This document shows positions 1 through 49,366 of a stretch of 64,000 bases of DNA, in pieces (within the stretch, counting starts at the first letter, position 1; every line of letters starts with the position of its first letter). Origin of the DNA: Alphaproteobacteria bacterium (GTDB lineage Bacteria; Pseudomonadota; Alphaproteobacteria; UBA6615); contig JAJFIX010000040.1 in assembly GCA_021774575.1 (NCBI GenBank), positions 1 through 64,000 of the forward strand, given 5' to 3'. The notes under the pieces were generated by a model. The model was not told where the DNA came from, ran no database searches, and saw nothing but the letters and a program-made list of their open reading frames with translations. The position numbers were made by a program, and so were the translations under genes.

Positions 1-401
1 TGCAGCCAGCGGATCGCCAGGTGATTGCGGATATCGACATGATTGCGCAGGGTGAGGTAATCGGTCCCCATCTCGCGCACCACCGGGGCGCAGGCCCGCA
101 GGAAATGGCGGGCATGGGCGGCCAGATCATGGCTGCCGACCATCCACGGGGTGCCCACCCCGGTCAGCAAGTTTCCCGGCGCCACACCGAATATGCACAC
201 CGGTTGTCCATCGGCTGTGCCGACCCGGGGGCCGGGGGTTGACCCGGCGCTGAGCGCCACCGACTGGGCGATCAGGTGGCCTGTGTCGCGAATACCGGTC
301 GCCGCATAGAGTTCGGCCCGGTCGGGCTCGCGCAGCCGGGCGGCGATGATCGCCACGTCGGCCGGGGTCGCCGGGACGATCTCGTAGCTAACGACCGACA
401 T
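1..401 (-). CDS. GNAT-like phage internal virion protein (T7 gp13/DUF2833-like), partial
   Basis: Reading frame with no stop from an ATG at 401 to the window edge, so 133 N-terminal residues are visible and the C terminus lies to the left. The start overlaps the end of the nozzle-like gene by 14 bases, typical of tightly packed phage genes. The visible part has an N-terminal beta-alpha unit (SVVSYEIVPATPADV), a GTPWMVGSHDL segment, and LRNHVDIRNHLAIRWL near the edge. This resembles the acetyltransferase-fold phage family that includes T7 gp13 (DUF2833), whose hallmark is a late N-x-(2,4)-RWL segment. Known members are thought to help assemble or eject internal core proteins; catalysis is unproven. 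The family call is from memory of motifs and the protein is incomplete. Confidence 0.72.
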   Translation of the reverse strand, partial: MSVVSYEIVPATPADVAIIAARLREPDRAELYAATGIRDTGHLIAQSVALSAGSTPGPRVGTADGQPVCIFGVAPGNLLTGVGTPWMVGSHDLAAHARHFLRACAPVVREMGTDYLTLRNHVDIRNHLAIRWL

Positions 402-3195
402 CGACCCGGGCAATCGCGCCGAGGATTTTGGCCGGCACCGGATCGGTTTGGCGAATGACCACGCCTTCATCGGCATCCCAGCCGGAATTGATATTGACCT
501 TGCGCAGGCCGGTGACCATTTCGACGGGGCGGTCCCAGGGTTCGGTCGAACGTCGCTCGACCGGGGAGAGGGTCGCATTCGGATCGTCGCCCCGGCGTCC
601 GACGAACAGGCCGCGATTGGCCTCCAGTCGCAGCCAGACCGTGTTCACCGATTTGGGCAGGCCCCAGGCCCCCTCCATCGATGGCGGCAGGGTTTCAAGC
701 TCGGCGGTATAGGCCAGGCCCGCGTGAATGCGGCTGGCCAATGTCCCGACGGTAATCTTGCCGTCGGTGACGGTTTGGGGTGGCATCACCTTGCCGTCGG
801 CCAGGATCGCCACGGTCTCGCCTTCGAGATGACCGAAGCCGTGGAGGGTATCGACAGGCAAGCGCACCACGCCACCGGGTAGGACCGGCACAAGTCCCGC
901 CCCATCAATCGACGCGCCGCCATTGCGGTCGCGCAGGGTAAAGCTTGTCAACGCCGCATCACCGACGACAAAGCGTTTACCGTTAAGCAGGGGTGTCGGG
1001 TCGGTTTCACCCGGCCCCACCCGGCCGCTGCGTATCGCGTCCAGATCGACGGGATCCCCGTCGATCATTCCATGGGGAATTTTTGTTTCCACCGTGACCA
1101 CGCCTGGGGTTCCGGTCACGGTCGCAATGTCGATTGGGTTATTATAGCTCAGGCCGCTATCGACGATGAAGGCGTCCTCGACGGCGGCAAAGCGGCGTTC
1201 GCGCAGGCGTTCGATATAGCGTCGCTCGGTGCCGTTGATCCGGCGCTTGATCACCGCATAGACAATATCTTCGCGGCCTTCGCGGATGGTGGCGATGCTT
1301 TCGACCGCGCCGTCCGTCGACGCCGTCGCCCAGGCAAAGACATTTTGTTCGCGCACAAATGTCAGGGTGGCCAGGTTGCCATTATCGAGCACCACCCAAA
1401 CTATCCGCGACGGGTTTTTTGCATAGGCCCAATCAACAATCCCCGCCCGTTCAAATATGTGGGGCGCCAGCTGGGTCAGGTCATTACCGGTAAAGCCGTT
1501 CGATTGCAGATCAAAACCGAGATCGCGCACCGTGTCCGTCCCCTCCTCGACATAGAGCACGACATTGCCGGTGAGAATCGGTGGGATGTGCGATGCTCCC
1601 TCAAAGGTCTGGGGTTTGCGATCGATCGAGGCCGGGGTGATCACCCCCTTATCGCCACTGATCCGCCAGACGCCACCACTAGTCAGGATCAGTAACTCGC
1701 CCAGGGAAACATAATGGCGGACCTCATTGACCGCGCGCGAGAAAATCGAGAACGTCACCGCGTCGTCATCCTTGGTCGGTTGGGAGACGCTGAAATTGCG
1801 GAAATCGGCGGACTGGGACATGAAGGTTTTTTGCGGCTCGTCGAAGCTATTGCCATAGACGGCGCGCTGTTCATGCAACCCAACGGCACCGGGGAACTTG
1901 CCCTGAGCGCGAAACGGGTTACGCGCCTTGGGTGGGGTATCGCCGAGCACGGTCAGGATATTGGCATCGGTATAGCTGGTTTTTTCCGTCGTGCCGATGA
2001 GCCCAAATATGCCGTTATCTTCGCGGTAAACCACATAATGGTCGACCGCCTCACCGGGCAGCAGCCCCGTCGGCGGGTTCCAGTTCAGGGTGATCGGATT
2101 GGCACTCTCCAGCGTTGCGTCAATCTCAGCGGCAAAACTGCGCGCCAGGTCACCGCCGATACCGGCCGGGTACCCGGTCCCGTCCTCCCCTTCCAGGTCA
2201 AAAATGTTGCTCGCAACATTAACATTGGCCGCACGAAACCGGCGGCCGTTAATCTGGGTCATGCCGGTGACATTTTCGATATGAACCTCTTCGCCTTCCC
2301 GCACCAGCAGAGGACCGGCACTGGTCACCCGTACCGGATCGGTGTTGGTAACGGTGGCGATGGTCGAGGGTATTTCAAGCCCCGGCAGGCTTTCCTCCAG
2401 GGTCTCCCCCTTAACCGCCGTCACCCGATAGCGAAACGTGTCGGTTCCGGCCAGGGCCTTTGCCGCCGTCACCCCGGTCGGAAAATCGATTGAGGGGGCG
2501 AACCGGCTCTCGGCATACTGCCAGACATGATGATCGGTCCGGGTCAGTGTCGCCGGTGGGTGGTCCTGGTGCACAAAAAACATGGTGTCGGCAGACTGAA
2601 CAAATTTGAGCAACGCCAGCTCGTCGGCCCGATAAGGTAGCGCCATGACAAACACCCGCGACACCGTTCCGCCGCCGCCATAAATCCCGAGCAAGGTTCC
2701 ATCCGCGCCAACCAGTTCGAAACTATTCAGTGTCACGTTAGCGATGGTAAAAAACCGGCTATTGAGCTCATCCATGCCGATCAGGTCGGCCACAAACACC
2801 TCATCCCCATCGCTATACCCATGCCCGGCTGCACTCACCAAAAGCGGGTCACCATTGCCCGCCCCGGTAACGGCAATGGCAGGTTCAAGCACGATCCCCC
2901 CATCCTTGAAAACTCGCATATACCGGTCCCCAAATTCGAGGATATAGGTTTGCAGCGTATTAAACTGAAACGGGATCAGTCGCACCCGCGCCCCGGAACC
3001 GGATGGCCCATCGGCCGCCGCCTTCACCTGCTTGACAAACCCAAAACCCGATCGGTTAAAAACCCCACCGTGAAAATCCACCAACATATTATGAATACGC
3101 CGCGCCCCACTGGCATATTTCGCTATATCCTCCCTCCCCTGTACCGAAGGCGCAATTTCCCCCGCCGCAAAGTTCGTCTGAAATATCTGTGTCAT
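388..3195 (-). CDS. phage tail nozzle-like protein (tail tubular protein B / FCCH-repeat type)
   Basis: 935 residues, preceded by GGAGAAGGT directly before ATG. The N terminus (TNFAAGEIAPSVQGRED, then HNMLVDFHGGVFNRSG) matches the start of nozzle or tail proteins of T7-like and BPP-1-like podoviruses: a gene-end tail component forming the DNA exit channel. Three related segments, near residues 118-170, about 288-345 and about 700-770, each follow the scheme HG-x-DGD-V-x-D-x-G-x-LN-R-F-x-V-x-SF-L, the small domain often labelled E1_FCCH in phage proteins. It lies directly downstream of the tubular A-like adaptor, as in T7 (gp11-gp12). The family is firm; the exact virion position is inferred. 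Confidence 0.82.
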   Translation of the reverse strand: MTQIFQTNFAAGEIAPSVQGREDIAKYASGARRIHNMLVDFHGGVFNRSGFGFVKQVKAAADGPSGSGARVRLIPFQFNTLQTYILEFGDRYMRVFKDGGIVLEPAIAVTGAGNGDPLLVSAAGHGYSDGDEVFVADLIGMDELNSRFFTIANVTLNSFELVGADGTLLGIYGGGGTVSRVFVMALPYRADELALLKFVQSADTMFFVHQDHPPATLTRTDHHVWQYAESRFAPSIDFPTGVTAAKALAGTDTFRYRVTAVKGETLEESLPGLEIPSTIATVTNTDPVRVTSAGPLLVREGEEVHIENVTGMTQINGRRFRAANVNVASNIFDLEGEDGTGYPAGIGGDLARSFAAEIDATLESANPITLNWNPPTGLLPGEAVDHYVVYREDNGIFGLIGTTEKTSYTDANILTVLGDTPPKARNPFRAQGKFPGAVGLHEQRAVYGNSFDEPQKTFMSQSADFRNFSVSQPTKDDDAVTFSIFSRAVNEVRHYVSLGELLILTSGGVWRISGDKGVITPASIDRKPQTFEGASHIPPILTGNVVLYVEEGTDTVRDLGFDLQSNGFTGNDLTQLAPHIFERAGIVDWAYAKNPSRIVWVVLDNGNLATLTFVREQNVFAWATASTDGAVESIATIREGREDIVYAVIKRRINGTERRYIERLRERRFAAVEDAFIVDSGLSYNNPIDIATVTGTPGVVTVETKIPHGMIDGDPVDLDAIRSGRVGPGETDPTPLLNGKRFVVGDAALTSFTLRDRNGGASIDGAGLVPVLPGGVVRLPVDTLHGFGHLEGETVAILADGKVMPPQTVTDGKITVGTLASRIHAGLAYTAELETLPPSMEGAWGLPKSVNTVWLRLEANRGLFVGRRGDDPNATLSPVERRSTEPWDRPVEMVTGLRKVNINSGWDADEGVVIRQTDPVPAKILGAIARVDVGR

Positions 3196-3220
3196 ACCTT
3201 CTCCTACCGATATTAGTTAT

Positions 3221-3276
3221 GGGGACACATTACTTATCTTTCTATAAGATTATGAATATATAAGTATTGTGTCCCC
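3221..3276. repeat. palindromic repeat with GGGGACACA ends
   Basis: Left arm GGGGACACATTACTTAT (3221-3237) and right arm at 3260-3276 are inverted repeats with 16 of 17 positions matching, around a 22-base AT-rich centre. It fills the 81-base gap between two co-directional phage tail genes and begins directly after the stop of the adaptor gene. The same arm occurs three times at 32.6 kb. I infer a small non-autonomous palindromic element, of the kind associated with IS200-like REP-associated tyrosine transposases; no such transposase is in the window. It could also act as a transcription attenuator between the two tail genes. Confidence 0.75.
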
Positions 3277-3879
3277 CTATTTATAGTCACCGACCCAGGG
3301 GGCGTCGGGTTGGGGTTGTTGGTCGCCTTCATTGGCGCTGGTGGCGCGTTCTATGTTGAGGAAGCTTTGGAAGAGTTGGAGTTGGTCGCCGGCGATTTCG
3401 CGTTTGCCAGTGAGTGGCATGGCGAGATAAGAGGCCAGGCGGTGGGAGAGGACGGTGACGAAACCGGGGTCGAAAATTTCTGTGTTGGTCACGTCTTTTA
3501 TGTAGATCAGCTCGGCTTGGGGCTGGTCGGTCAGCACCACCTTGATATCCTCGCCACCGGGACCACGGGAACCGGAAATCTCGTAGGGGGTTTTTGGACC
3601 GATCTTGCTGGGGCGGGCGATTTCCCAGGCGCGGATCAGCCGGTCAGGCAAGCGATAGCGCTTGGCCCAGTCGCTGGGGGGGCCCCCCATATCTTCGAGA
3701 AAAACGCGCTCGGTGGCGAAGTTCCACAGATGCTCGCGCAAAGTCGCCCGCCGCACCGGGTCATAGAAAAGGCGGCAGGTCGTGGCCTCCTTCCCCAGAT
3801 CGGTGTCGGGGTCGTTGATATTGGCGTCGGCATTTATATGGCCGAGCGCCATGTTCCAAATCGCCGCCTTGCTAGTCAT
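3277..3879 (-). CDS. phage tail adaptor (tail tubular protein A / T7 gp11-like)
   Basis: 200 residues. The N terminus TSKAAIWNMALGHI, then CRLFYDPVRRATLREHLWNFA (about residues 36-56), is the signature of the T7 gp11/tail tubular A family, which forms the ring joining the portal to the nozzle. The ATG overlaps the stop of the 59-aa gene upstream (ATGA), indicating translational coupling within the late operon. Length is close to the usual 190-210 residues. A palindromic repeat begins directly after its stop codon. Function is well supported by motif and gene order. Confidence 0.88.
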   Translation of the reverse strand: MTSKAAIWNMALGHINADANINDPDTDLGKEATTCRLFYDPVRRATLREHLWNFATERVFLEDMGGPPSDWAKRYRLPDRLIRAWEIARPSKIGPKTPYEISGSRGPGGEDIKVVLTDQPQAELIYIKDVTNTEIFDPGFVTVLSHRLASYLAMPLTGKREIAGDQLQLFQSFLNIERATSANEGDQQPQPDAPWVGDYK

Positions 3880-4055
3880 TTTTCGGAACTCTTGGTTTTT
3901 TTGATTTTGCCCGGTTTCGCCTTTTCCTCTACCGGGCTTTTCACCGGCACCATCCAGCTTGCCAAGGCGTCGACCCCCTCTTCGAACTCAAACCCACTGC
4001 CCTCCGGGCGGAACTCGTTGCCGTAGAATCCGTCGAAAATTGCCACTACACGCAT
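3876..4055 (-). CDS. small phage protein of unknown function (59 aa)
   Basis: ATG at 4055 with GAGGAGCAGGCA upstream; 59 codons ending in TGA that overlaps the adaptor ATG by four bases. The protein starts MRVVAIFDGFYGNEF, has an acidic middle, and ends in a lysine-rich, proline-containing tail (KPGKIKKTKSSEK). I do not recognise a family. Coupling to the adaptor, a good ribosome site and position between cement and tail genes argue that it is a real late gene, perhaps a head-completion accessory protein. Function is unknown. Confidence 0.72.
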   Translation of the reverse strand: MRVVAIFDGFYGNEFRPEGSGFEFEEGVDALASWMVPVKSPVEEKAKPGKIKKTKSSEK

Positions 4056-4083
4056 ATTGCCTGCTCCTCAAATCTTGGTGTGT

Positions 4084-4121
4084 GGGGACGACATTTTGCG
4101 CTATGCCGTCCCCCCTTTTTC
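4084..4121 (+). terminator. GGGGACG stem-loop with T run, between capsid cement and tail genes
   Basis: GGGGACGACAT (4084-4094) pairs with ATGCCGTCCCC (4103-4113) with one mismatch and an 8-base loop. On the plus strand it is followed by CCC and TTTTT, so it looks like an intrinsic terminator for transcription entering from the left. On the minus strand, the direction of the late genes, there is no U tract, so it would be at most a pause or processing site there. It could alternatively be a relic of a palindromic element. Confidence 0.5.
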
Positions 4122-4127
4122 AAACTC

Positions 4128-4526
4128 TTAAATCGTCGATTGGTGGCCGGCGACGGCGCCGGCAATCAACGAACCGGCCGTCGGCGCGGCGCCAACAACA
4201 GTGTAGACCAGGCGCATATAGCGCCCGTCGGTGCCCCTGGGCAGATAGTCGATCGGCAGCTCGGCGCCGACGGTCAAGTCGGTCACCGGCACGGGCCCGG
4301 TGGTCGCGACGGCACGCGAGCTGGCGAAAGTCTCGTTATCGTCGATCTCCAGGGTTGCCTCCAGGCTGGTCAAATTATTGAACGCCTCGGTCACCTGGAT
4401 CAGTAGGGCGACCGGGGTGCCCGACCCGATATCGCGGGCCGTGCCCAGGTCGATATCGTTCTGGGAAGGGCCCGAACCAGTGATTGCCTGGCGGTTGGAA
4501 AAGAGAGTTTCCTTGTCGATAAGCAT
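4128..4526 (-). CDS. capsid cement protein, Bbp16-like
   Basis: 132 residues beginning MLIDKETLFSNRQAITGSG and continuing with an IDLG motif and glycine-rich turns, which is the pattern of the Bbp16 capsid cement family of BPP-1. That protein decorates and stabilises the icosahedral head on the outside. It directly follows the major capsid gene (26-base gap) as in BPP-1. No catalytic role is expected. The call rests on the N-terminal pattern, size and gene order. Confidence 0.82.
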   Translation of the reverse strand: MLIDKETLFSNRQAITGSGPSQNDIDLGTARDIGSGTPVALLIQVTEAFNNLTSLEATLEIDDNETFASSRAVATTGPVPVTDLTVGAELPIDYLPRGTDGRYMRLVYTVVGAAPTAGSLIAGAVAGHQSTI

Positions 4527-4552
4527 GAATAATTTCTCCTATCTTTGGTTGT

Positions 4553-5539
4553 TTATATGACCCGGGCTTCGGTGTTCAGGATCTCGTCGACCTGGCGCAC
4601 CGGGATGCCGAGAAATTTGACAATTTCCTTGCCCTCGAAACTCTCGATGGAGAGATTGACATTGGCCTGGTCCTTGGCCCGCTTGTGCAGCGCCAGCTGA
4701 ACCGCCTCATTGCAATAGATCGCCTTCTTGCCCGGCCGCTTGCGCACCCGATAGAAACCGTCGATCATCAGATCCTCGATCGCCACCGTACCGGCCTGCA
4801 TTTCGCTGGCATCGATATTGGCAATCCGCGCCGTGCCCCGCCAATCACGCAGAACAAAACCGACGTCCCACTTATAGTGGGTGCGATAACCTTGATACTG
4901 GCCACCGGTCTGATCCTGCAGGGTCACTTCCCCCAAGTCGTTATGCTGGAAGCCGGCGAGTGTGCCTTTGGGATAGGTTAGAAACCCGGTCTGGTCGCCC
5001 CAGGTGACAAACCAGATCGAGGTATTATCGGTCCCCAGGCCACCGCCATCGATGATGTTGGAGCCCGACTGGGTCCGGTCGGCGCTGAGTTCGCTAAACC
5101 GCGGGGCGAGCCCCAAGAACCGTTCGGGATTGGCATTGGTGTTGCCGTAAAACAGCGTCTGAACCATATTCTGGTTCATCGCTTCGAGGAATGCCGCGTC
5201 TTCCGACAAGCGGAATTCGGCGGAGTTGCCATTGAGATCGGCCAAGGATTTATCGATCTCGGCATAGGCTTCGAGCATGCCTGTGCGGTCATCGACCTGC
5301 ATCGTTGTCGATTTCGATGTCGGCACGCCGTAATTGAGCATCCGCCAAGCAACCGACGGCAGGCCGGTTCGCACAGTGGTGCGGTGACCGGTCGGCAGAT
5401 TGCCTTCAATGGCAATGGCGTCGTCGAGCACCTCGTTGGTCTCGCTCATGATTTCGATGATCGCCGCGACCTTATGATCCGGGTCTTGGCGCTTCATCAA
5501 ATCGACGAGGGTGGGATATGTATTTCCGATAGTCGGCAT
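4553..5539 (-). CDS. phage major capsid protein (BPP-1 Bbp17-like)
   Basis: 328 residues, starting MPTIGNTYPTLVDLMKRQDP, with the AIEGNLPTGHRTTVRTGLP segment (about residues 42-60) characteristic of BPP-1-type major head proteins. These have the HK97 fold and build the T=7 shell. The gene sits between scaffold and cement genes, the standard order. Length agrees with the family (about 325-335). There is no N-terminal delta domain, consistent with a separate scaffold gene immediately upstream. Confidence 0.9.
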   Translation of the reverse strand: MPTIGNTYPTLVDLMKRQDPDHKVAAIIEIMSETNEVLDDAIAIEGNLPTGHRTTVRTGLPSVAWRMLNYGVPTSKSTTMQVDDRTGMLEAYAEIDKSLADLNGNSAEFRLSEDAAFLEAMNQNMVQTLFYGNTNANPERFLGLAPRFSELSADRTQSGSNIIDGGGLGTDNTSIWFVTWGDQTGFLTYPKGTLAGFQHNDLGEVTLQDQTGGQYQGYRTHYKWDVGFVLRDWRGTARIANIDASEMQAGTVAIEDLMIDGFYRVRKRPGKKAIYCNEAVQLALHKRAKDQANVNLSIESFEGKEIVKFLGIPVRQVDEILNTEARVI

Positions 5540-5572
5540 AGTCTTACTTCCTTTTTGCTAAAACGAACGCGG

Positions 5573-6307
5573 TCAGGTCGGCGTCTGGTCGGGGTAAATG
5601 CGCTGGGCGAGACTTTTCTCTCCACCGGCAAAACCCGATCCGGACGGGGCGACAAAGACCATGTCCTGGCTCATTGCTTTTCCAACGCGATAGGCGAATC
5701 GGATCAGTTCGGGATGGTTACCGAAGCCTTGATCGTTCAACACCTGTTTGAGGGCGGGAGTGCCGAAGCGTTCGATGGCGGTGGCGGCGACGCCGAGTTT
5801 TTGCTGCATTCCCGCGCCGCCTATTTCGCCATCGGAACGCACACCGGCGACCCATTCTGATTGTTGATCCACCCAGGTTTTCGAATGTTCCTCGGCCAGT
5901 CGCGCCGCCGCATTCGCCTGCAGATCGACCAGGCGCTGGGCCTGGCTCTGGTTGAGGCCGAATTCACGGGCGGTTTCCTGGAACTCACCGAGCAGGTTTT
6001 CATCCGCCTCGACCCCGTCGGGCAGAATGAAGGTCGCATAGACCATTGGCGCCGCCTGGCCATCCTCGGCCTCGGCATCTTCGCCACTGGAGTCGCCACT
6101 GGGGCCCGCCGGCGCTTTTTGGTCCGGTCCTTTTTGGGTCAAGTCCGGATCACTGAGCAGCGAGGCATCGCGATTGATGCCGGGGATCCCCTCACCTATT
6201 TCGGGCTGGTTGATTTCACCGATGTCTTGTGTCGGGCTCCCACTAATGGGGCCCCCATTTGCGGGGTCAGAAATGACGATTTTTTCAATGACGCTGTTAT
6301 CGGGCAT
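5573..6307 (-). CDS. phage head scaffolding protein
   Basis: 244 residues. The first 85 are acidic, low-complexity and rich in Gly, Pro, Asp and Glu; the rest is helical and charged, with a W-x5-W segment (TWVDQQSEWVAGV) and LNDQGFGNHPELIRFAYRVGK near residues 195-215. This layout is typical of scaffold proteins encoded directly upstream of the capsid gene in podoviruses; they direct procapsid assembly and leave before DNA packaging. The start overlaps the Bbp19-like gene by 11 bases. I see no serine protease motif, so it is probably a pure scaffold. Confidence 0.78.
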   Translation of the reverse strand: MPDNSVIEKIVISDPANGGPISGSPTQDIGEINQPEIGEGIPGINRDASLLSDPDLTQKGPDQKAPAGPSGDSSGEDAEAEDGQAAPMVYATFILPDGVEADENLLGEFQETAREFGLNQSQAQRLVDLQANAAARLAEEHSKTWVDQQSEWVAGVRSDGEIGGAGMQQKLGVAATAIERFGTPALKQVLNDQGFGNHPELIRFAYRVGKAMSQDMVFVAPSGSGFAGGEKSLAQRIYPDQTPT

Positions 6308-6590
6308 AAGCCTTATTCTCCTCGATCATGGTGATATAGGTTTGGGGGGCGGCCTCCATCACGTCGGCCAATACCGAAAGCCCCAGAGCGCGCTTGCCCT
6401 CCTTAAACGTCCCGGCGCTATTGCCGGTAAACGTCGTCTCGAACTGGTGCGCGCGCTCCAAAATTCCGTAGATCCAGCGGCGCCCATCCGGGGTCGAGAG
6501 GATCTTGGCCAGCTCGGCCATTTCCCCGGCATGGCGAACCCGGACATTCTGGCGTTGTTTTTTCGCCGCCTCGTTATCCCCCCCGGTCAT
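6297..6590 (-). CDS. Bbp19-like phage structural-cassette protein
   Basis: 97 residues with the core LAKILSTPDGRRWIYGILERAHQFETTF followed by TFKEGKRALGLSVLADV. This tryptophan-tyrosine-rich core is the mark of the Bbp19-like domain found between portal and scaffold genes in BPP-1-type phages. Its role is not established. It overlaps both neighbours by 4 and 11 bases (portal stop and scaffold start), so the three are translationally coupled. Confidence 0.8.
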   Translation of the reverse strand: MTGGDNEAAKKQRQNVRVRHAGEMAELAKILSTPDGRRWIYGILERAHQFETTFTGNSAGTFKEGKRALGLSVLADVMEAAPQTYITMIEENKAYAR

Positions 6591-8338
6591 GGCGCCACCG
6601 GCACGGGCGCGCCTGGCACCGGCGCGCCTTGCCCACCCTGCCCCGTCACCTGCGCTATGATATCGCCCGCGTTTTCGGTCAGGTTCTGAGCAACACCATC
6701 CGCCGCCGCCTGGCCGCTCGGACTGCCAATCACTGCGGGAATACTTTGCATCGCAACCTCGCTCCCAACTTGAACCGCAGCTGCGGCTTCCATGGCTTGC
6801 ATTTCTTTTTCCTCCTTGGCTTGGCGGTTAGCTTCGATCTCGCTGGCGGGCACGATCAGGGTTGCCGGGGCGCCGGCGGCGCTGGCAAATTCCTCGATCG
6901 ACTGTTCGACGTTGAATTTGTCGAGGGCCTGGGGATAGGCCCCAGCCAGCCCGCCGACAAAACCGGCGGTGCGCTCGATGGCACTGATACCAACGACTTG
7001 CTGGGCCTGGGCGATCAGCGAGACAAATTCGATCTCCAATTCGGTTCCCTCCAATTCCGGTGGCGGCGGTGGCAGCAGGCCGGCCTCGGCCATGGTGGCA
7101 AAACTATTATCGATCAGCGGCGCCAGCATGGCGTTGGTCGCGCGCTGGACCACCGGCCCTAATTGCAGCAACCGCTCTTCGTGTTTGCGGGCCACTTCCT
7201 CGGCGGTGATATCGCGCCGGTCAGAGGTGGCGAGCAGCAAGAAGAGATCGACATACATCGCCCGGTTGATCCGGGTTTCGACTTCGCGAATATCGACCAT
7301 CAATTCCGAGATACGCGGATCGACTTGATAGCTCGGGGTGAACGCCCCCTGGCTTTCATCGACATAGGTGATGTCGCCGGGCAAGACCGAGGCATATTTT
7401 CGCCGCAGGCTGGTCGGACCCTTCATCGGCGGGTCGGCCATTTTGACAATCGCCTTGGCTTTTTGTTTCTCCTCGGTTTGCAGAGCTTTGGCGTCGCCGA
7501 GGGCATCCATGCCGGGGCTGGCCCCATAGACATCCGGCGGTGTGACTTCCCAGCGAGTGGCGTAAACGGGGAAGCGGCGAAAGCCGCCGCGCTTTAGAAA
7601 TCCATTTTCCGACCCGTCGGCTTTTTCCCAATAGGCGGACATGAAGGGCATATTAGCGCTATCGGAGGCGCCCTCGTCTCCGGCAAAATTGGGCTCGATG
7701 GCGTGGACCACTTCGACCCAGGCATGGGCATTGCCCTTGTCCCAGAGATTGCGCACGCTGGGCGACACCGCATCCAGGCCGAAACTTTCGACCATATGGG
7801 CGACGGTCATCGGCACATCGCGGTAGAAGGCATTGACATTGCCCCTGGCCGAGGTGGCCAGATAATATTCGCCGACCGTCGAGCCATAGAACCGCGTCGT
7901 CTCGGAAAAATCATCGAGTTGCATCATCGCCGCCGTGCCAAACACACCGAGCTCGGCATAATAGGGCGGCAATAGATCATAGAAATTGGATTGGTTGAAC
8001 ATGCCGCGCATGGCCCGTTCAACCTCTTCGATCCACACGCGAACCGGACCGAAATCATTGAGATCCTTATCGGCCGCCGCCAGTTTAAACCAGGGCCGAG
8101 CCGGCGAGGTAATCGCCGACATCATTCCGGCGGCCAGTGTGCGGCGGGCAACAATCGCCGTATTGTTAATAATGTTACTGTTTTTCTTCTGCCCCTTATT
8201 GACGTTGGAAGCGAGAAAGCGCCCCCGGCGGGGATAAAAGAAATCCCCCAACTCGCGCCAATGGGGCACCCAACTGGCGCGCTCGCGCACCAATTCGGCG
8301 CGGCGGCGCACCAGCCGTTGTTTGGTCCCTTCGCTCAT
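6587..8338 (-). CDS. phage portal protein (head-tail connector)
   Basis: 583 residues. The N terminus contains RASWVPHWRELGDFFYPRRGRFL (about 20-42), then TLAAGMMSAITSPARPWFKL, both diagnostic for the podovirus head-to-tail connecting protein family (PF12236). Twelve copies form the portal ring through which terminase packages DNA. Later comes a VEQSIEEFASAAGAP segment, then an Ala/Gln-rich, probably flexible C terminus ending in a PVPGAPVPVAP repeat. Length is typical (520-600). It lies downstream of terminase and a small proline-rich gene. Confidence 0.92.
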   Translation of the reverse strand: MSEGTKQRLVRRRAELVRERASWVPHWRELGDFFYPRRGRFLASNVNKGQKKNSNIINNTAIVARRTLAAGMMSAITSPARPWFKLAAADKDLNDFGPVRVWIEEVERAMRGMFNQSNFYDLLPPYYAELGVFGTAAMMQLDDFSETTRFYGSTVGEYYLATSARGNVNAFYRDVPMTVAHMVESFGLDAVSPSVRNLWDKGNAHAWVEVVHAIEPNFAGDEGASDSANMPFMSAYWEKADGSENGFLKRGGFRRFPVYATRWEVTPPDVYGASPGMDALGDAKALQTEEKQKAKAIVKMADPPMKGPTSLRRKYASVLPGDITYVDESQGAFTPSYQVDPRISELMVDIREVETRINRAMYVDLFLLLATSDRRDITAEEVARKHEERLLQLGPVVQRATNAMLAPLIDNSFATMAEAGLLPPPPPELEGTELEIEFVSLIAQAQQVVGISAIERTAGFVGGLAGAYPQALDKFNVEQSIEEFASAAGAPATLIVPASEIEANRQAKEEKEMQAMEAAAAVQVGSEVAMQSIPAVIGSPSGQAAADGVAQNLTENAGDIIAQVTGQGGQGAPVPGAPVPVAP

Positions 8339-8341
8339 ATC

Positions 8342-8596
8342 TTATGATCCCCCGAGGAGCGACGTGCGCCGGGTGCGCGGGCGCAATGCGCCGCCGATCA
8401 AGGATCGACCGACATTGGCGTCGTCGGTCAGGCCTTGGCCGCCGGTGGCAAAGGTTGCCGAGCTACCAAATCGCGACCGGGCGGCATTGGCCACGCGGGT
8501 TGGCGAGCGCTGTATATCCGGGTCGCTGGGCGACGGCGGTTCAGGGATCGGCGGTGGTGGCGGCGGTGGCGGCGGTGGTTGTGAGCCAGTACACAT
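8342..8596 (-). CDS. proline-rich small phage protein between terminase and portal
   Basis: 84 residues, MCTGSQ followed by a run of ten prolines, and ending RTSLLGGS only three bases before the portal gene. Small proteins with an early Cys-Gly/Pro-rich stretch and a terminal LLG occur between large terminase and portal in related phages. The Cys at position 2 is not in a lipobox context. Function is unknown; position, spacing and conserved ends support a real gene. The DNA shows a tandem GGC/GGT tract (8540-8580) encoding the prolines on the other strand. Confidence 0.7.
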   Translation of the reverse strand: MCTGSQPPPPPPPPPPIPEPPSPSDPDIQRSPTRVANAARSRFGSSATFATGGQGLTDDANVGRSLIGGALRPRTRRTSLLGGS

Positions 8597-8612
8597 TATT
8601 GGTCTCCTTTAC

Positions 8613-10097
8613 TTATTGCGTCTGTTGATCGAGCGGATCGAAGTCGTGGGCCATCGTCCCCGGCATGGCATCGGGCCGATGCAGCCCAAACCGCGCCGAA
8701 ACGACGGGATGGGCAAAGGTCAAAACAAAGGCGTCGGCGGCGTCGGGAGAACGGCCGAGGCGCGTCTTAAAATCCTGCTTTTTTTCCAGCACGATCCGCG
8801 CCTCGCCGCCCCGCCCCCCGGCATAGGCGTAATCCATCGTCGTCAATTCTTCTTTCAGATCCCGGTCATCGGGAATGGCCCCGGTTTCGAGCCAGGTGCG
8901 GGCAATGCCATACATTTCGGCCCGTTTATTGAGATAGGCCCGGTCCCCCGGCGCCCCGCCGAAATTGACCTCAATGACATCGACGCCAAGATCGGTGCAG
9001 CGATCGACCACTCCGCCGCCAACCCCGCCCCCATCGATAAAGATCGCATCGGGATGAAGCTCATTGGCCAGCCGGGCAATCTCCCCGGCCAGATGCATGG
9101 TGCTGCGCCCGCGATAGGACAGAGGCTTAAGGCTTGCCGCGTCGCGGCCCCGGCGAAACCAGATCATGCTGGCATCATCGCCATAGCGCGCCACATCAAC
9201 CCCGAAGACCAGCGGGTCTTGGGGATAGGATTTGGGCTCGCGGGTTGCGGCGGCGTCGACCAAGTCGGTGCCGATAAATTGGGCGGCGCTCTGTTTGGGA
9301 AACGCGCCTTTGACCCGAGTCGTGACAAAATCGCTATCCTCGCCATAGGCCTCGATCCACTGGGCGATTTGGGCTTTGTTGGTAAACCGGACCTGGCGCG
9401 CATCGACCCGCCAGCAGAGCCAATATTTGCGATATTTGCGAAAACATTCGCGAAACCGGCCGACGGCGCGAGTGCCGTTGCCAAAGGCGCACCAGATGAT
9501 TTGAGTGTCGGCATCGGTCAGGGCGCCCTCGGCAACCTCCCAAATTTCATTGGCAATTGCCGAGGCCTCATCGAAAATCAACAGCAGCCGTTTGCCCGCA
9601 TTATGCAATCCGGCAAAGGCCTCTGAATTATGTTCGGACCAGGCGATCATATCGATCCGCCAGGTGCGCTCGTGGGCCGGGTCGGCGGAATAAATCGCCG
9701 TCGCCGTGCGGTGAAACCAATGTTTGATGATCGACCGGTTATGCCACTTGGCCAGCTCGACCCAGGTTTTGGTTTTAAGCTGGGTTTCGGTATTGGCAGT
9801 GACAATGCCCCGCGCATCTTCGAATGTCGCCAGGCTCCATAATATAAGCCAGGCAACCAGCGCCGATTTACCCACCCCATGACCCGAGCAAGCGGCAATA
9901 CGGATCGCTTGGTCGGCCGAGACCAGCCCGTCGCGGACTGCCTCCAAAACCTCCAACTGCCAGGCCTCGGGCCCCGGATGATTGGCCAAGTCCCCCTGGC
10001 CCCAGGCAAAAGCGAAGCGCACAAACCGCACCGGATCGGCGGCACACGCCGCCATTTCCGTGGTCAGTTCCCGCTCGGCGTCGGAGAGCCCGGACAT
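8613..10097 (-). CDS. terminase large subunit
   Basis: 494 residues. Walker A is SGHGVGKSAL (residues 71-80, K77) and Walker B LLLIFDEAS (171-179, D176/E177), giving the packaging ATPase. The C-terminal nuclease domain shows FGVDVARYGDDAS (acidic residues), IFIDGGGVGGGV and a late SPDAADAFVLT motif that complete the RNase H-like metal site. It starts immediately after the small membrane gene (TAA then ATG with no gap). It is full length for the family and appears intact. Confidence 0.93.
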   Translation of the reverse strand: MSGLSDAERELTTEMAACAADPVRFVRFAFAWGQGDLANHPGPEAWQLEVLEAVRDGLVSADQAIRIAACSGHGVGKSALVAWLILWSLATFEDARGIVTANTETQLKTKTWVELAKWHNRSIIKHWFHRTATAIYSADPAHERTWRIDMIAWSEHNSEAFAGLHNAGKRLLLIFDEASAIANEIWEVAEGALTDADTQIIWCAFGNGTRAVGRFRECFRKYRKYWLCWRVDARQVRFTNKAQIAQWIEAYGEDSDFVTTRVKGAFPKQSAAQFIGTDLVDAAATREPKSYPQDPLVFGVDVARYGDDASMIWFRRGRDAASLKPLSYRGRSTMHLAGEIARLANELHPDAIFIDGGGVGGGVVDRCTDLGVDVIEVNFGGAPGDRAYLNKRAEMYGIARTWLETGAIPDDRDLKEELTTMDYAYAGGRGGEARIVLEKKQDFKTRLGRSPDAADAFVLTFAHPVVSARFGLHRPDAMPGTMAHDFDPLDQQTQ

Positions 10098-10280
10098 TTA
10101 GGCGCCCCCCGCGATCATCGCTAACAACAAGGTCGTGCGAAACGAAACATAGACGGTGAGCAAAGTGATCGAAGCCACCATCAATAAAACCAGCAAGATC
10201 GCCCCGGCCAGGGCCAGCATCCCGACACCCCGCGCGCAGGCAAATATCCAGGCAAATAGCTCGGCCATAAATTTGCTCAT
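10098..10280 (-). CDS. small phage membrane protein (60 aa)
   Basis: 60 residues, almost all hydrophobic from residue 8: a segment around 15-45 (GMLALAGAILLVLLMVASIT) long enough to cross the membrane once or twice, and a second short hydrophobic end (TTLLLAMIAGGA). The start ATG overlaps the stop of the small-terminase-like gene, and its stop is flush with the terminase ATG, so it is embedded in the operon. Holin or holin-like function is possible from size and hydrophobicity, but its position between terminase genes is unusual for a holin, and no endolysin is in view. Confidence 0.65.
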   Translation of the reverse strand: MSKFMAELFAWIFACARGVGMLALAGAILLVLLMVASITLLTVYVSFRTTLLLAMIAGGA

Positions 10281-10792
10281 TCCGAATCTCCATCGGTTGG
10301 ATCCCCACTAGCGGGAGTTAGCCGCGCCCGTGCGTCGGCCAGCCGGTCGGCCAGCCCGCCATCCATATTGACTTCGGCCCGGTCCTTGAACCGGTCGGGA
10401 TTGCGGGCTTTGAGTAAAAAGATTGCGGCGCGGGTGTCGTAGCGGGTGACATATTCCCCGGTGTGGCGCCCCTGATGAAACCCAACCGGTTCCTTGGTGC
10501 CAAGGACACCCCGACGAAACAGCTCGTCTTCGATCACATCGGACCCGGCATCGATCGCTTCATCGGCGGCCTGACAAAATTCTTCGTCACGGGTCCGCTC
10601 GCGATAATAGGTCTGGCGCGAAATCCCCGTCGCCTTGGCCGCCGCACTCACCGACCAGCCCTGCGCCAGTTTTTCCAGCAAGCTGTCGCGCCGCCCCGGC
10701 GTCAGAAGTAAACGACGCCGGTTCGCCGGCGATTTGGCCAGGGTCCGGTTTGCCGGAGATTTAGCGGGGGGTTTTGAAACGGTTTCGATCAT
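10277..10792 (-). CDS. small terminase-like helix-turn-helix protein
   Basis: Start chosen at the ATG at 10792, which has AAGGA seven bases upstream; a longer frame to 10834 lacks a ribosome site. 171 residues: a basic N terminus with a repeated KSPANR motif, then a helix-turn-helix (WSVSAAAKATGISRQTYYRER) and a helical acidic region with RYDTRAAIFLLKARNPDRF. This is the pattern of terminase small subunits that bind the packaging site and recruit the large subunit. It is the first gene of the minus-strand late operon and is directly followed by the membrane protein and large terminase. Confidence 0.78.
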   Translation of the reverse strand: MIETVSKPPAKSPANRTLAKSPANRRRLLLTPGRRDSLLEKLAQGWSVSAAAKATGISRQTYYRERTRDEEFCQAADEAIDAGSDVIEDELFRRGVLGTKEPVGFHQGRHTGEYVTRYDTRAAIFLLKARNPDRFKDRAEVNMDGGLADRLADARARLTPASGDPTDGDSE

Positions 10793-10922
10793 AAAGAATT
10801 CCTTGATGGTCCAACATCGGGTTGGACCGAACAAATTGAATTGAACGCAGACTACACTATTGTTGTTATTATATCAACAACTTTCACAGGAAATGGCGTA
10901 GATTTTTCCACCGCGCTCACTC

Positions 10923-10970
10923 GTGACGCACAAAATGGCGCATTCTAACCATTTTATGCGATATCGTCAC
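10923..10970. promoter_or_regulatory. imperfect palindrome, candidate operator or packaging/origin site
   Basis: GTGACGCACAAAATGG (10923-10938) and, inverted, CCATTTTATGCG followed by CGTCAC (10949-10970). Both half-sites read CCATTTTrTGCG..CGTCAC outward, with an extra ATAT in the right copy. Placed 130 bases upstream of the small terminase start and about 380 upstream of the primase, it suits a repressor operator, a terminase binding site or an origin iteron. This is inference from symmetry and position only. Confidence 0.45.
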
Positions 10971-11067
10971 ACGCACAAAAATACAGAAAGCCAAAAAATA
11001 GAGTGCCATCGACGAATAATCATCGCCACCCAGTAGGCGTTATATATCCGTGCCGCCGTCGCCAACG

Positions 11068-11116
11068 AAAGCTCTACATATTTTTTTCTATATAAAACAA
11101 ATTGTTATAGAGCTTT
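11068..11116 (+). other. 9-bp inverted repeat with long AT loop
   Basis: AAAGCTCTA (11068-11076) pairs perfectly with TAGAGCTTT (11108-11116), followed by TTC; the 31-base loop is AT-rich. It is weak as an intrinsic terminator because of the large loop. It lies between the control palindrome and the primase start and might be a leader structure of that transcript or an origin hairpin. Confidence 0.35.
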
Positions 11117-11353
11117 TTCGGTGTTACCTGCTGGTCACGGATTGACCACGAGGCGGCCACAGGCCGGAACATACCCCATTTCACTGATTGCGAAATTATT
11201 AACGTTGCGTTTTTCTCATCGAGGTGCTTTAATCTCCCCACGCCCCTGCTGGCGATACTGAAGAGCGAATAATCTGCCATTTCCAATCAATATCCCGGCC
11301 GGGACCGGCCGCCCTGCTCTGTGACCAACCCTTGTGAGTGGCCATAAATCGAC

Positions 11354-14104
11354 ATGACCAATCAGCCGAAAATCGATACCGCCGCCCTGCTCGACGCCCA
11401 TCCCATCGCCGAGATTGTCCGGGCGCGAACAGCCCTGGCCAAGGACGGGGCGGAGTTTAAGGGGCGCTGCCCCTTTCACGATGACCGAACATCGTCTTTC
11501 TATGTCGTACGGGATAAAGGGTTTTACCATTGCTTTGGCTGCGGCGCCCACGGGGACGGCATAGATTTCATCATGACCCATGACGGGGTGGGATTTCGCG
11601 CCGCCTGCGACTTGCTCGGCGGTGGTGATTTTCAACCGCGCCGAACTCGTTCAATCCCAGCCCTCCAGCTACCGCCCACCGGGCAAATAATTGCCGGAAA
11701 ACCGACACCGCCAGTCGCCAATCCCAAACGGGCCGACGACCGCGACCGGGCGACGTCGATCTATACTCCGGCGGCGGTCTATGATTATCGCGATATGGAT
11801 GGCGCTCTTTTGGGCCATGTGCTGCGGATTGAATTGGCGGCCAACAGCAAGGCACCGCGTGCCAAGGCCCGTAAATGGACGCCGACCATACGCTGGATGG
11901 CCACCGATCCGGATCGACCACCGGGCTGGACCCTGGCCGGGTTCGACAAACCACGCCCGCTCTACGGTCTCGACCGGCTAGCTGCCCAGCCCAATGCGCC
12001 GGTGCTGGTGGTCGAGGGCGAAAAGGCCGCCGATGCCGGGGCAACCATCCTGCCCGATTGGGTCACGATCGCCTGGCCCGGCGGCGCCCATGCGGCAAAA
12101 CACGCCAACTGGCACCCCCTGGCCGGGCGGACCGTGACCATCATGCCCGACGCCGATCCGCTCGGCGCAACAGCAGCGGCGGTCATCGCCCAAACCCTCA
12201 CCCAGATCGGCGCCCAGTCGGTCACCGCCTTAGCAATCGACCCGACCAAACCAAAAGGCTGGGACCTCGCCGACGCCGTCGCCGAAGCCTGCCCCCCCCA
12301 CCGCCTCCTCAACTGGTTCACGCCGCGGGCGGCCGGGTTACACATGACCGGGCCGGGCGTGGACGGGTCGCGGGAGGCCCCGCCACAAGAAGCCGAGCCA
12401 CGTGGGGCCCAGGCCGACGAAAGCTTTACTGCGCTTGGTCACGGCGCTGGGTCGCGCTATTTTTATTTGTGTCACGGGTCCCAGCAGATCGTCGAACTGG
12501 CGGCGGCGGGCCATACGAAAAATGCGTTGCTGGAACTTGCGCTCCTCTCCTATTGGCGGGCCATATGTGGGAACAAGCGGCTCATGGGTGCATGGCCGCT
12601 TGTCAGGCCAGGGGGGGTTTTTCGCCGCGTAATATTCGTGGCCGGGGGGGCCTGGTTAGATGAGGCATTAGACGCGGACACGCCCGGCGCGGGTCGGGCG
12701 GTGCTGCATCACGGACCGGCCATTCTGGTCGATGGGTACGACCGGGGGCTCGACGCCGCTACGGGAAAATATATCTATGAACGCGCGCCCTCCATCGGTC
12801 TGGGAGCGGCCAAAATATTGACCTCAAAAGATCCCAAATTTCAACAACCGGATGCGACTGCACTGGCCGATATCGCGGCCCACCTTTCCTGGGAAAATCC
12901 GTTGAGCGGCGCCTTGCTCGCCGGGTTTTTCATTGTTGCGCCGGTGTGCGGGCTACTCGATTGGCGGCCTCATCTGTGGTTGACCGGCCCGTCGGGCAGC
13001 GGCAAAACAACGGTGGTCGAAGATATCGCCAAGCGGGTGATCGGGCCAATCGGCCTCAATTTTGAAGGCTTTACCAGCGAAGCGGCAATCCGCCAGACCC
13101 TGGGTCGGGACGCTCGCCCGGTGATTTTGGATGAAGCCGAGAGGGAAAACGAAAAAAGTGCTGCCGAAATGCGACGGGTATTAAATTTGGCCCGGGTCCC
13201 TTCATCGGGGGGCGAGATCGCCAAGGGCGGCGCCGGTGGCCGCCCGACCAGCTACTGCGCGCGATCATGCTTTTTCTTTGCCTCGATCAATCCGCCGATC
13301 GAGCATTGCGCCGATGCCAGCCGGATCACCACCTTGGCGCTAAAGCTCCGGGCCACCGCCAGCCCGGCGGCAGTGGCCGCGGCCGAAGCCCACTATGCCG
13401 CCTTGGCGGCGATGATCGCCAACCGATTGACGCCGGGATATGCCGCGGCAATGCTGATCCGCACCCTCGATCACGTCGAGGTCTTGCGGGCCAATATCGC
13501 CACCATCACTCGGGTTGCCGCCGGATATCATCTTTGCCGCAAAGCCGAGACTATCACCCAAGCCGCGGCCAAAACCTGGATCGCCGCCCAGGACTGGACT
13601 CGCCACACCGCCCTCACCGCGCCCAAAGACGAGCAGCGGTTGCTCGATAAACCGCTCACTCATCGGGCCCGCATTCAAACCAGCCAGGGTCCGCGCGACA
13701 TTCCACTGGGTGTCCTGATCGCCTACGCCGCCGGCCGGGGCGAAGCCGCCGAAATCCCCAAAGACGTCGCCGCGCGAGAGCTCCGCCGCACCGGCATTCT
13801 GGTTCAAGACCCTAGCGACGAACACCATCATGACGGCGAGACCGTTGCCTTCTGCAACGGCGCCGATCAGCTCAAACAAACCCTCACAGGAACCCCCTGG
13901 GCGGCAACCTATGGCGACCAGCTCCGCCATCTCTACAGGGCCAAACTGACCAACCCCAAACGCTTCGCGCCGGGCATCAGAGGCCGCGCCTCGGCCCTGC
14001 CGATAAGCGCCGTGATCGAATCCGCAATTACCGTAATTACATATGCATGGGCGGAAGGCACCCGGCAGGGCAAGCTTATACAGATAGAATTAGTGGATTA
14101 TTAA
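11354..14104 (+). CDS. phage/mobile-element DNA primase-helicase (CHC2 zinc finger, TOPRIM, P-loop)
   Basis: 916 residues. An N-terminal CHC2-type zinc finger has ligands C39, H42, C60 and C63 (RCPFH...HCFGC). A TOPRIM-like domain follows with VVEGEK (E221) and the acidic pair in MPDAD (D266, D268). The C-terminal half has a P-loop GPSGSGKTT (545-553, K551) and Walker B-like VILDEAE (D593, E594), then SSGGEIAKGG and an arginine-bearing segment resembling superfamily 3/DnaB-like helicases of integrated elements. It would prime and unwind prophage DNA. It is transcribed away from the late genes, and it directly abuts a host-type pilin gene, so it probably marks the right end of the prophage. 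The frame appears intact. Confidence 0.85.
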   Translation: MTNQPKIDTAALLDAHPIAEIVRARTALAKDGAEFKGRCPFHDDRTSSFYVVRDKGFYHCFGCGAHGDGIDFIMTHDGVGFRAACDLLGGGDFQPRRTRSIPALQLPPTGQIIAGKPTPPVANPKRADDRDRATSIYTPAAVYDYRDMDGALLGHVLRIELAANSKAPRAKARKWTPTIRWMATDPDRPPGWTLAGFDKPRPLYGLDRLAAQPNAPVLVVEGEKAADAGATILPDWVTIAWPGGAHAAKHANWHPLAGRTVTIMPDADPLGATAAAVIAQTLTQIGAQSVTALAIDPTKPKGWDLADAVAEACPPHRLLNWFTPRAAGLHMTGPGVDGSREAPPQEAEPRGAQADESFTALGHGAGSRYFYLCHGSQQIVELAAAGHTKNALLELALLSYWRAICGNKRLMGAWPLVRPGGVFRRVIFVAGGAWLDEALDADTPGAGRAVLHHGPAILVDGYDRGLDAATGKYIYERAPSIGLGAAKILTSKDPKFQQPDATALADIAAHLSWENPLSGALLAGFFIVAPVCGLLDWRPHLWLTGPSGSGKTTVVEDIAKRVIGPIGLNFEGFTSEAAIRQTLGRDARPVILDEAERENEKSAAEMRRVLNLARVPSSGGEIAKGGAGGRPTSYCARSCFFFASINPPIEHCADASRITTLALKLRATASPAAVAAAEAHYAALAAMIANRLTPGYAAAMLIRTLDHVEVLRANIATITRVAAGYHLCRKAETITQAAAKTWIAAQDWTRHTALTAPKDEQRLLDKPLTHRARIQTSQGPRDIPLGVLIAYAAGRGEAAEIPKDVAARELRRTGILVQDPSDEHHHDGETVAFCNGADQLKQTLTGTPWAATYGDQLRHLYRAKLTNPKRFAPGIRGRASALPISAVIESAITVITYAWAEGTRQGKLIQIELVDY

Positions 14105-14171
14105 CTTTTTTCATCAAATATCTGGTCACCATAGTTAATATTTAACCAACCCTTTCGCAGGAACAATTAAT

Positions 14172-17075: not shown

Positions 17076-17203
17076 ATTTCTGCCTCCCGTAAGTCCCAAA
17101 GTGCCGCCGTTGCACCGCAACGGCGCTTCTGATAGTTTCGTTGTTATATTCTCAAACTCCACCTCCAATTCGGTTCTTTTCCGGCAAACAAGGAACATTC
17201 ATT

Positions 17204-49175: not shown

Positions 49176-49241
49176 GGGCCACCTCCAGGTTGAATATTCC
49201 AGGAGCTATTCTTTCGCACTATGCTTTGATTCGACGCAATA

Positions 49242-49346: not shown

Positions 49347-49366
49347 AGGGGGGGGCGGGCCACCAG

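What the first reader, a model, noticed from the sequence alone, without database searches (positions are those of the whole stretch)
1..14104. BPP-1-like podovirus prophage in an alphaproteobacterium, truncated by the window edge
The gene order small terminase, tiny membrane protein, large terminase, proline-rich protein, portal, Bbp19, scaffold, capsid, cement, 59-aa protein, tubular A, nozzle, GNAT-like protein matches Bordetella phage BPP-1-type virion cassettes, but the CHC2-TOPRIM-helicase replication gene is divergent. The left side, where BPP-1 carries tail fibre and diversity-generating retroelement genes, is outside the window. The cassette looks largely intact, so this may be a functional or recently functional prophage of an undescribed genus.
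Basis: partly seen in the sequence, partly recalled or inferred. Interest (0 to 1): 0.8.

Follow-up and report, generated by a model that had tools for sequence, protein, structure and literature searches.

The report
Phage shell with scattered injected effectors
The left end of this bacterial contig carries the packaging, head and short-tail genes of an epsilon15-type phage, and the same genome holds a scattered family of proteins, predicted to resemble phage ejection proteins, whose exchanged C-terminal ends are likely toxins that such a phage particle would inject.

Summary
The gene order is real: window 1-10834 (minus strand) encodes gp13 (cut), nozzle, tubular A, cement, GP7 capsid, scaffold, Bbp19, portal, TerL and TerS. 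The left edge is a contig end, so the left flank cannot be read. Virion proteins are closest to Uetakevirus (MCP 58%, portal 47%); no phage DNA matches by megablast, and the phage has its own long branch. On the right, one CHC2 primase-helicase is followed by Flp pilin genes, with no integrase seen. No DGR was found: the only reverse transcriptase is a type II-A retron's. The contig end shares 141 bp with contig C4, where a gp13 remnant lies near a new protein family: 13 segments on 8 contigs, a conserved N-domain and about five C-terminal types; one type has the same kind of membrane protein beside both copies. Its low-confidence N-domain model best matches a podoviral SLT ejection-type protein (E 1.6e-5; a shorter control model matched nothing). 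I read it as a likely polymorphic effector family on an ejection-protein chassis. Toxicity and delivery by the window's phage are untested.

The parts
1..141 (.). 141 bp identical to the first 141 bp of contig C4 of the same genome: assembly fork where the contig ends
1..401 (-). gp13-like internal virion protein (GNAT-like), 3' end cut by the contig end; start at 401 inferred, listed frame 3-578
   Evidence: phrog_308 4.6e-27; eps15 gp13 38%
388..3195 (-). tail nozzle (tubular B) with E1_FCCH insert, 935 aa
   Evidence: phrog_376 5.6e-189, PF16190 1.2e-13
3277..3879 (-). tail tubular protein A
   Evidence: phrog_394 1e-42
3876..4055 (-). 59 aa frame, unidentified
   Evidence: no PHROG match; no match in 160 related loci
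4128..4526 (-). cement protein (Bbp16/gp8 type)
   Evidence: phrog_427 6.4e-25; eps15 gp8 47%
4553..5539 (-). major capsid protein GP7 family
   Evidence: PF20911 1.9e-133; 58% to Salmonella phage 65FD
5573..6307 (-). scaffold/protease (Bbp18/gp6 type)
   Evidence: phrog_458 1.5e-46
6297..6590 (-). Bbp19-like protein
   Evidence: PF25181 4.7e-7
6587..8338 (-). portal (head-to-tail connector), the only one found in the genome bin
   Evidence: PF12236 1.8e-159; 1 match in G000
8342..8596 (-). proline-rich 84 aa phage protein
   Evidence: phrog_831 7e-8
8613..10097 (-). large terminase
   Evidence: phrog_5902/phrog_2; 48.6% to Purivirus UFJF_PfDIW6
10098..10280 (-). 60 aa frame, hydrophobic by reading, unidentified
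   Evidence: no PHROG match
10277..10834 (-). small terminase
   Evidence: phrog_4044 3.2e-21
11354..14104 (+). divergent CHC2 primase-helicase
   Evidence: PF01807, phrog_35358; 33% to Bordetella phage PY223
14172..14456 (+). Flp/Fap pilin: first host-type gene, taken as the right limit of the phage part
   Evidence: PF04964 2.8e-15

Best explanation
The first 10.8 kb of the window is the packaging, head and tail module of an epsilon15-type short-tailed phage cut by a contig end, and the same genome carries a dispersed family of proteins with one conserved N-domain, predicted to be of the phage ejection-protein class, and exchanged C-termini that likely act as injected effectors. Shown: an open virion cassette whose portal is found once in the bin; one primase-helicase gene and then Flp pilin genes on the right; a 141-bp identity that ties the broken gp13 gene to contig C4, where a gp13 remnant lies 0.7 kb from the gene that follows an effector gene of this family; a family junction after the motif RNDG; and neighbour genes that go with one C-terminal type. 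Inferred: the cassette would assemble particles (TerS/TerL packing DNA through the portal into the GP7 shell, tubular A and nozzle forming the tail). Family members with a lipase-like or HExxH C-terminus would be carried in the head and ejected with the DNA into the target cell, while the adjacent membrane or secreted proteins would protect the producer. The lack of an integrase on the readable side suggests a partly degraded or domesticated prophage.
For: Cassette. Own lineage. Right limit. Fork with C4. Effector family: 13 segments on 8 contigs, none in 23 other genomes of the family, none in phage or plasmid records; in the protein database 4 hits among the 7,994 scored candidates, which appear to be this genome's own. 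Modularity: 56-98% identity in the 52 aa up to RNDG in all 15 pairs; in the next 300 residues over 60% in 2 of 15 pairs. One C-terminus is Lipase_3 over cut-off. The two proteins of one type (C5, C15) both abut the same kind of membrane protein; five tandem paralogs lie beside a lipase-type gene on C16. N-domain model in BFVD: 9 hits at E 0.001 or better, the best an SLT protein of a podovirus (E 1.6e-5, prob 1.00); of 11 informatively named targets among the 50 listed, 10 are peptidoglycan hydrolases or internal virion proteins of phages and 1 a tape measure. PDB best 0.13; helical control model best 0.12 in BFVD.
Against: The N-domain model is poor (mean pLDDT 40). Of the 9 significant fold hits only the best has an informative name. 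The control was shorter (263 vs 761 aa) and made from one sequence, so it had less power, and 6 of its 50 listed targets also occur in the N-domain list, at E 0.4-1.4. Profile comparison with the gp15/transglycosylase family is not significant (hhalign prob under 5%; hmmsearch best 0.0078 over 8 sequences). No toxicity, immunity or packaging was tested. The N-terminal copies on C42, C40, C28 and C5 lie beside host genes, not phage genes. G024, the relative I tested, has a single ejection protein of its kind. Two family copies carry a stop at about residue 209 and a third an internal stop. The C5_712 and P0003 types may be distantly related (40.8% over 260 aa including the N-domain), and 3 of the 15 post-junction comparisons rest on fewer than 25 aligned residues. 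The bin may mix strains (C5 and C28 ends 86% alike), so C4 need not be in the same chromosome as the window.
Confidence: 0.5

Rival explanations
1. Ordinary, partly degraded epsilon15-type prophage; the dispersed family is only the debris of older prophages of the same kind, with C-termini that vary as ejection proteins usually do.
For: Ejection proteins are mosaic and can swap a hydrolase domain (passages of PMC8954989). G024's ejection protein found no relative but itself among 7,987 scored candidates. Several copies are truncated or carry stops.
Against: One portal found in the bin against 13 family segments. N-domains stay alike while C-termini change at one site. N-terminal copies sit beside host genes with no phage gene recognised in the stretches listed. 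Same-type neighbours and tandem paralogs.
Confidence: 0.35
2. A complete, inducible temperate phage whose lysogeny and lysis genes lie left of the contig end.
For: Open frames and several overlapping gene ends in the cassette. The integrase can lie on the tail side in this group (UFJF map). A repressor-like HTH protein lies at 17141-18025 (phrog_4 1.5e-5).
Against: In BPP-1 and JessA the early region lies on the TerS side, where only one gene is left here. Of 6 integrase-family hits in the bin, those I looked at (C8, C31, C33, two on C43) are not beside genes of this phage type; the C43 pair lies among a few genes that may be phage-like by reading, and the C42 hit was not looked at.
Confidence: 0.2
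3. C4 and the window are strain variants in a mixed bin, so the effector family belongs to another population.
For: Fork typical of a k=141 assembly; C5 and C28 ends 86% alike, with the same neighbour by reading.
Against: The tool lists the bin as 96.9% complete and 0.5% contaminated. A full-length family gene lies on C42 (488 kb) and an N-terminus at the end of C40 (305 kb).
Confidence: 0.25

Closest known systems
Uetakevirus (epsilon15, Tyrion, Salmonella 65FD)
   Same: Same virion gene order; MCP 45-58%, portal 45-47%
   Different: No DNA match by megablast; no match to epsilon15 gp9/gp10; divergent CHC2 primase next to TerS; not in the Uetakevirus clade
Bordetella phage BPP-1 (Rauchvirus) and Caulobacter JessA (Rauchvirus in the record, Jessavirus proposed in PMC11053796)
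   Same: Same cassette and a primase near TerS; MCP 52%
   Different: Portal 40-41%; no Brt, Avd or Mtd found; BPP-1 and JessA form their own clade (98)
Pseudomonas phage UFJF_PfDIW6 (Purivirus)
   Same: Best TerL among phage records, 48.6%
   Different: Portal 40%, MCP 48.5%, other early genes
Prophages of Tistlia consotensis and Sneathiellales PL23a_bin.86
   Same: Portals 52% and 48%, same gene order incl. gp13
   Different: No CHC2 match within the held flank; ejection protein single copy in the latter
MuF polymorphic toxins of temperate phages (PMC5576092, passages seen)
   Same: Phage head-associated N-domain, variable C-terminus, small downstream gene, proposed injection with the DNA
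   Different: No MuF domain among Pfam hits of the family; N-domain predicted to be of the podoviral ejection-protein class; genes dispersed and mostly outside the phage module

Membership tests
epsilon15/BPP-1-type podoviral structural module | PF12236 portal, GP7 capsid, cement, Bbp19, tubular A and nozzle in fixed order | tested here: met
epsilon15/BPP-1-type podoviral structural module | short-tailed virion | not testable with these tools
   needs microscopy
Rauchvirus (BPP-1 genus) | groups with BPP-1 on virion proteins | tested here: not met
   portal+MCP tree of 20 taxa: BPP-1+JessA 98, window outside
Rauchvirus (BPP-1 genus) | DGR with Brt, Avd, Mtd | tested here: inconclusive
   one RT in the bin and it is retron type; brt/avd/mtd no hit in the own DNA held, 852 kb at the last count, or in 160 related loci with flanks of at most 10 kb; the left half itself is not readable
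Uetakevirus | DNA similarity at genus level | tested here: not met
   no megablast match for 1-14200
functional temperate prophage | integrase, repressor, att sites around the module | tested here: inconclusive
   no integrase seen on the right; weak repressor-like HTH protein beyond the Flp genes; no 16-, 18- or 22-mer of the right junction shared with other held contigs; left unreadable
MuF polymorphic toxins | MuF N-domain | tested here: not met
   Pfam scan of four family proteins, no MuF hit
polymorphic toxins in general | conserved N-domain with exchanged C-termini | tested here: met
polymorphic toxins in general | cognate immunity gene beside the toxin | tested here: inconclusive
   same neighbour family for the C5/C15 type, five tandem paralogs beside a C16 lipase-type gene; no function tested
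polymorphic toxins in general | toxic C-terminus | not testable with these tools
   only Lipase_3 and an HEAFH motif by reading
podoviral ejection (internal virion) protein class, for the N-domain | fold and sequence of gp15-type proteins | tested here: inconclusive
   fold match E 1.6e-5 with controls but model pLDDT 40 and no significant profile match

The most novel reading that the evidence does not exclude
This alphaproteobacterium keeps one epsilon15-type phage particle module as a delivery machine and has spread a set of effector genes over its chromosome, each built on the phage's ejection-protein N-domain with its own toxin and immunity partner: a podovirus-based counterpart of MuF toxins or of effector sets of contractile injection systems, loaded in trans.
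Probability: 0.25. Interest if true: 0.85.

Novelty: new variant of a known kind. Interest (0 to 1): 0.55.

Why it matters
The prophage itself adds one more deep lineage to a phage group that is widespread in Pseudomonadota. If the effector reading holds, short-tailed phages, not only MuF phages and contractile systems, would serve as chassis for polymorphic toxins. The ejection protein, whose enzyme domain already varies between phages, would be the exchange site, and induced particles would make this directly testable. My searches listed no paper that joins podoviral ejection proteins and polymorphic toxins (listings only, open-licence library only).

Tried and rejected
DGR in the missing left half: the genome-wide RVT_1 search gave one RT, which is PADLOC RT_II-A with an NDT_II-A partner, so a retron; no support for a DGR. 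Left half on another readable contig: tblastn of BPP-1, epsilon15, UFJF and JessA frames against the own DNA held (contig ends, small contigs, 852 kb with some overlap) found of the virion module only C4 (gp13) and C23 (a tail-fibre N-terminus), plus an isolated hit of a UFJF frame on C2, a pentapeptide repeat in the window and a lytic-transglycosylase-like stretch near C34's right end. C23 may belong to this or another prophage; not decided. C21 CHC2 hit: by reading it is the host DnaG. Homology of the N-domain to gp15 by profile: not significant. Protein-database search with G024's ejection protein: only itself. Viral-contig scan with C42's protein: no relative. Right-junction k-mers: none shared. 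G024's small toxin-like genes after its ejection protein were seen but not followed.

Known gaps: 8 of 46 contigs of the bin read as N, so genome-wide searches may not have seen them. The tree has no supported sister for the window (nearby supports 50-61). Family counts: 13 segments in 10 places; at least 8 loci if the bin is pure (5 with their own N-terminus, 3 internal). C-terminal types: about five among six readable C-termini.
Full report
Observation. On the minus strand from TerS to the contig end lie TerS, a 60 aa frame, TerL, a proline-rich phrog_831 protein, portal, Bbp19, scaffold/protease, GP7 major capsid protein, cement, a 59 aa frame, tubular A, nozzle and a gp13-like protein that is cut at base 1. 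The order is that of epsilon15, BPP-1, UFJF_PfDIW6, Ab31, Tyrion and AF, apart from small extra genes. Divergently, a 916 aa CHC2 primase-helicase ends at 14104. A Flp pilin gene begins at 14172 and another at 16116, then a MAPEG protein follows.

Placement. Among 50,697 phage records, the best matches are MCP 58% (Salmonella phages 65FD and 66FD; 65FD is Uetakevirus), portal 47% (Tyrion, Uetakevirus), TerL 48.6% (Purivirus) and nozzle 38-41%; there is no DNA match by megablast for 1-14200. Epsilon15 itself is closer than BPP-1 for portal, cement, tubular A and TerL, and BPP-1 closer for MCP, Bbp19 and scaffold. A portal+MCP tree of 20 taxa puts the window on a branch of 0.60 outside Uetakevirus, Purivirus and the BPP-1/JessA clade (98), with weak support for any sister (50-61). 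In GTDB species genomes, 212 of 336 pattern-matching stretches encode a relative of the portal; the best are Tistlia consotensis (51%) and an alphaproteobacterial MAG (50%). Of the 80 loci kept, 58 match TerL, 60 the MCP and 57 the nozzle within the held flank (at most 10 kb), but only 2 the CHC2 protein (0 of 80 viral loci). The primase partner is therefore not a fixed part of the module. BPP-1-related phages of an alphaproteobacterium are already in print: Caulobacter phages JessA, SR18 and RW (passages of PMC11053796 seen).

Integrity. The cassette is open throughout. On the right there is no early region of the kind that BPP-1 and JessA have on that side. Frames of BPP-1, epsilon15, UFJF and JessA of 90 aa or more matched, in the window beyond the cassette, only a pentapeptide-repeat protein near 44.6-45.4 kb. 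Against this, an HTH protein at 17141-18025 has weak matches to phage repressor families (phrog_4 1.5e-5). No 16-, 18- or 22-mer around 14040-14200 recurs in the held contigs. I therefore think the prophage is incomplete or domesticated, but its left half is unread.

The contig end. The first 141 bp of the window equal the first 141 bp of contig C4 (6,638 bp) in the same direction. C4 then keeps 55 bp at 91% of the gp13 gene at an 84-bp offset and turns into other sequence. A scan of contig ends showed the same 141-bp sharing at many contig joins, so this looks like a k=141 assembly fork. The sequence left of the window would be shared by two continuations, either two copies or two strains. 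The shared left node is not in the readable bin.

DGR. The only RVT_1 hit in the bin is a type II-A retron RT beside its NDT effector on C19. BPP-1 Brt, Avd and Mtd have no match in the own DNA held or in 160 related loci. Contig C23 carries a 1,564 aa tail fibre whose N-terminus resembles the epsilon15 gp20 and UFJF tail spikes, followed by two LamG-like proteins, one with a PF13385 hit, not a C-type lectin cassette. Whether C23 belongs to the window's phage is not known.

The effector family. On C4, reading towards the gp13 remnant, come the C-terminus of a large protein weakly matching a phage internal virion family (phrog_6651, 8.5e-4), a 131 aa frame, a 787 aa protein ending in a Lipase_3 domain (24.0 bits, cut-off 22) and a 402 aa protein with a hydrophobic start. 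The N-terminal part of the 787 aa protein is shared by 13 segments on 8 contigs (C42, C4, C5, C23, C28, C40, C8, C15) and by none of the 23 other genomes of the family. Six C-termini can be read and fall into about five types. In the 52 residues up to RNDG all 15 pairs are 56-98% identical. Over the next 300 residues only C5_864/C15 (67%) and C4/C5_864 (61%, a shared middle module) exceed 60%, with C4/C15 at 50%; three of the comparisons rest on fewer than 25 aligned residues. One type carries an HEAFH motif by my reading. C5_864 and C15_594, of the same type, each end 1-2 bp from a convergent membrane protein of one family (34-57% identical; C5 has two copies in tandem). A lipase-type gene on C16 without a visible N-domain lies 22 bp from a tandem array of five paralogs (the other four 74-88% identical to the nearest), and C36 pairs two short lipase remnants with a relative (72%). 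Copies with an N-terminus on C42, C40, C28 and C5 sit beside host genes that I read as preA, nadA and queF (names from reading, no call).

What the N-domain is. Its start resembles the start of gp15-type transglycosylase ejection proteins. Profile tests are only suggestive: hhalign aligns the same region in register, with E-values of 0.0026-0.016 but probability under 5%, and hmmsearch reaches 0.0078. An AlphaFold model from four sequences is helical over 108-365 with mean pLDDT 40. Against viral models it gives 9 hits at E 0.001 or better; only the best has an informative name, an SLT-domain protein of Podoviridae sp. ctXBg1 (1.6e-5, prob 1.00). Among the 50 listed, 11 targets have informative names: 8 peptidoglycan-hydrolase proteins (SLT, LT, lysozyme, NlpC/P60, GH108), 2 internal virion proteins and 1 tape measure. 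Against 350,542 PDB chains nothing is better than 0.13. A helical host protein from the window, modelled from one sequence with pLDDT 44, finds nothing better than 0.12 in the viral library, although 6 of its 50 listed targets are also in the N-domain list. The control is shorter than the query, so it is not a perfect match. I take the N-domain as likely of the ejection-protein class.

Mechanism. From the review PMC8954989 (passages seen): ejection proteins form a channel for the genome, and a peptidoglycan-hydrolase domain can swap between them; that they leave the head before the DNA is recalled. For MuF toxins, loading into the head and delivery with the DNA was hypothesised (PMC5576092, passages seen). 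By analogy, family members would be carried by epsilon15-type particles. A single portal against many family loci fits loading in trans, but no call shows it. The main rival is prophage debris with ordinary ejection-protein mosaicism.

Verdict. The given finding is a genuine new lineage of a known phage group, of modest interest by itself. The dispersed family with ejection-like N-domain, exchanged C-termini and partner genes raises the interest.

Noticed in passing
L011 (G000:C19) 1809-3714: Type II-A retron pair: NDT effector (PADLOC 3e-60) and RT (3e-117).
   Followed up: yes
L043 (G000:C33) 1-7157; also C3, C7: Tyrosine integrase at 50-1024, integron type by reading, followed by about ten ~100-bp repeats 79-93% alike between small genes (attC-like by reading). 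C3 and C7 frames share stretches of the same kind by reading. Possibly foreign contigs in the bin.
   Followed up: no
L041, L052, L053, L055, L056, L057: Repeat like GGAAGAAACGGGGACACGTTACTT beside several family cassettes, some of which start at about residue 97-109; looks like a REP/IS200-type element (recalled).
   Followed up: partly
L115 (G000:C16 right end) 5204-10038: Five tandem paralogs (~300 aa, secreted by reading) beside a lipase-type gene.
   Followed up: partly
L021+L022 (G024:C40) 48409-51068: After the ejection protein, small toxin-like and lipoprotein-like genes (by reading) in a Sneathiellales prophage.
   Followed up: no
window 17141-18025: HTH protein with a lysine/alanine-rich start and weak matches to phage repressor families, 3 kb right of the primase gene.
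   Followed up: partly
window 20342-21232: AbiEi antitoxin (7e-94); I recognised no AbiEii toxin gene beside it in the ORF list.
   Followed up: no
window 18272-18538: Short-chain dehydrogenase remnant: N-terminal motif by reading, joined to the last 52 profile positions.
   Followed up: no
L054 (C23) and L052 (C5): Two family copies share a stop codon at about residue 209 where others have a glutamine.
   Followed up: no
G000:C5 right end vs C28 left end: 86% identical stretches including the same neighbour gene (by reading): duplication or a sibling strain in the bin.
   Followed up: no
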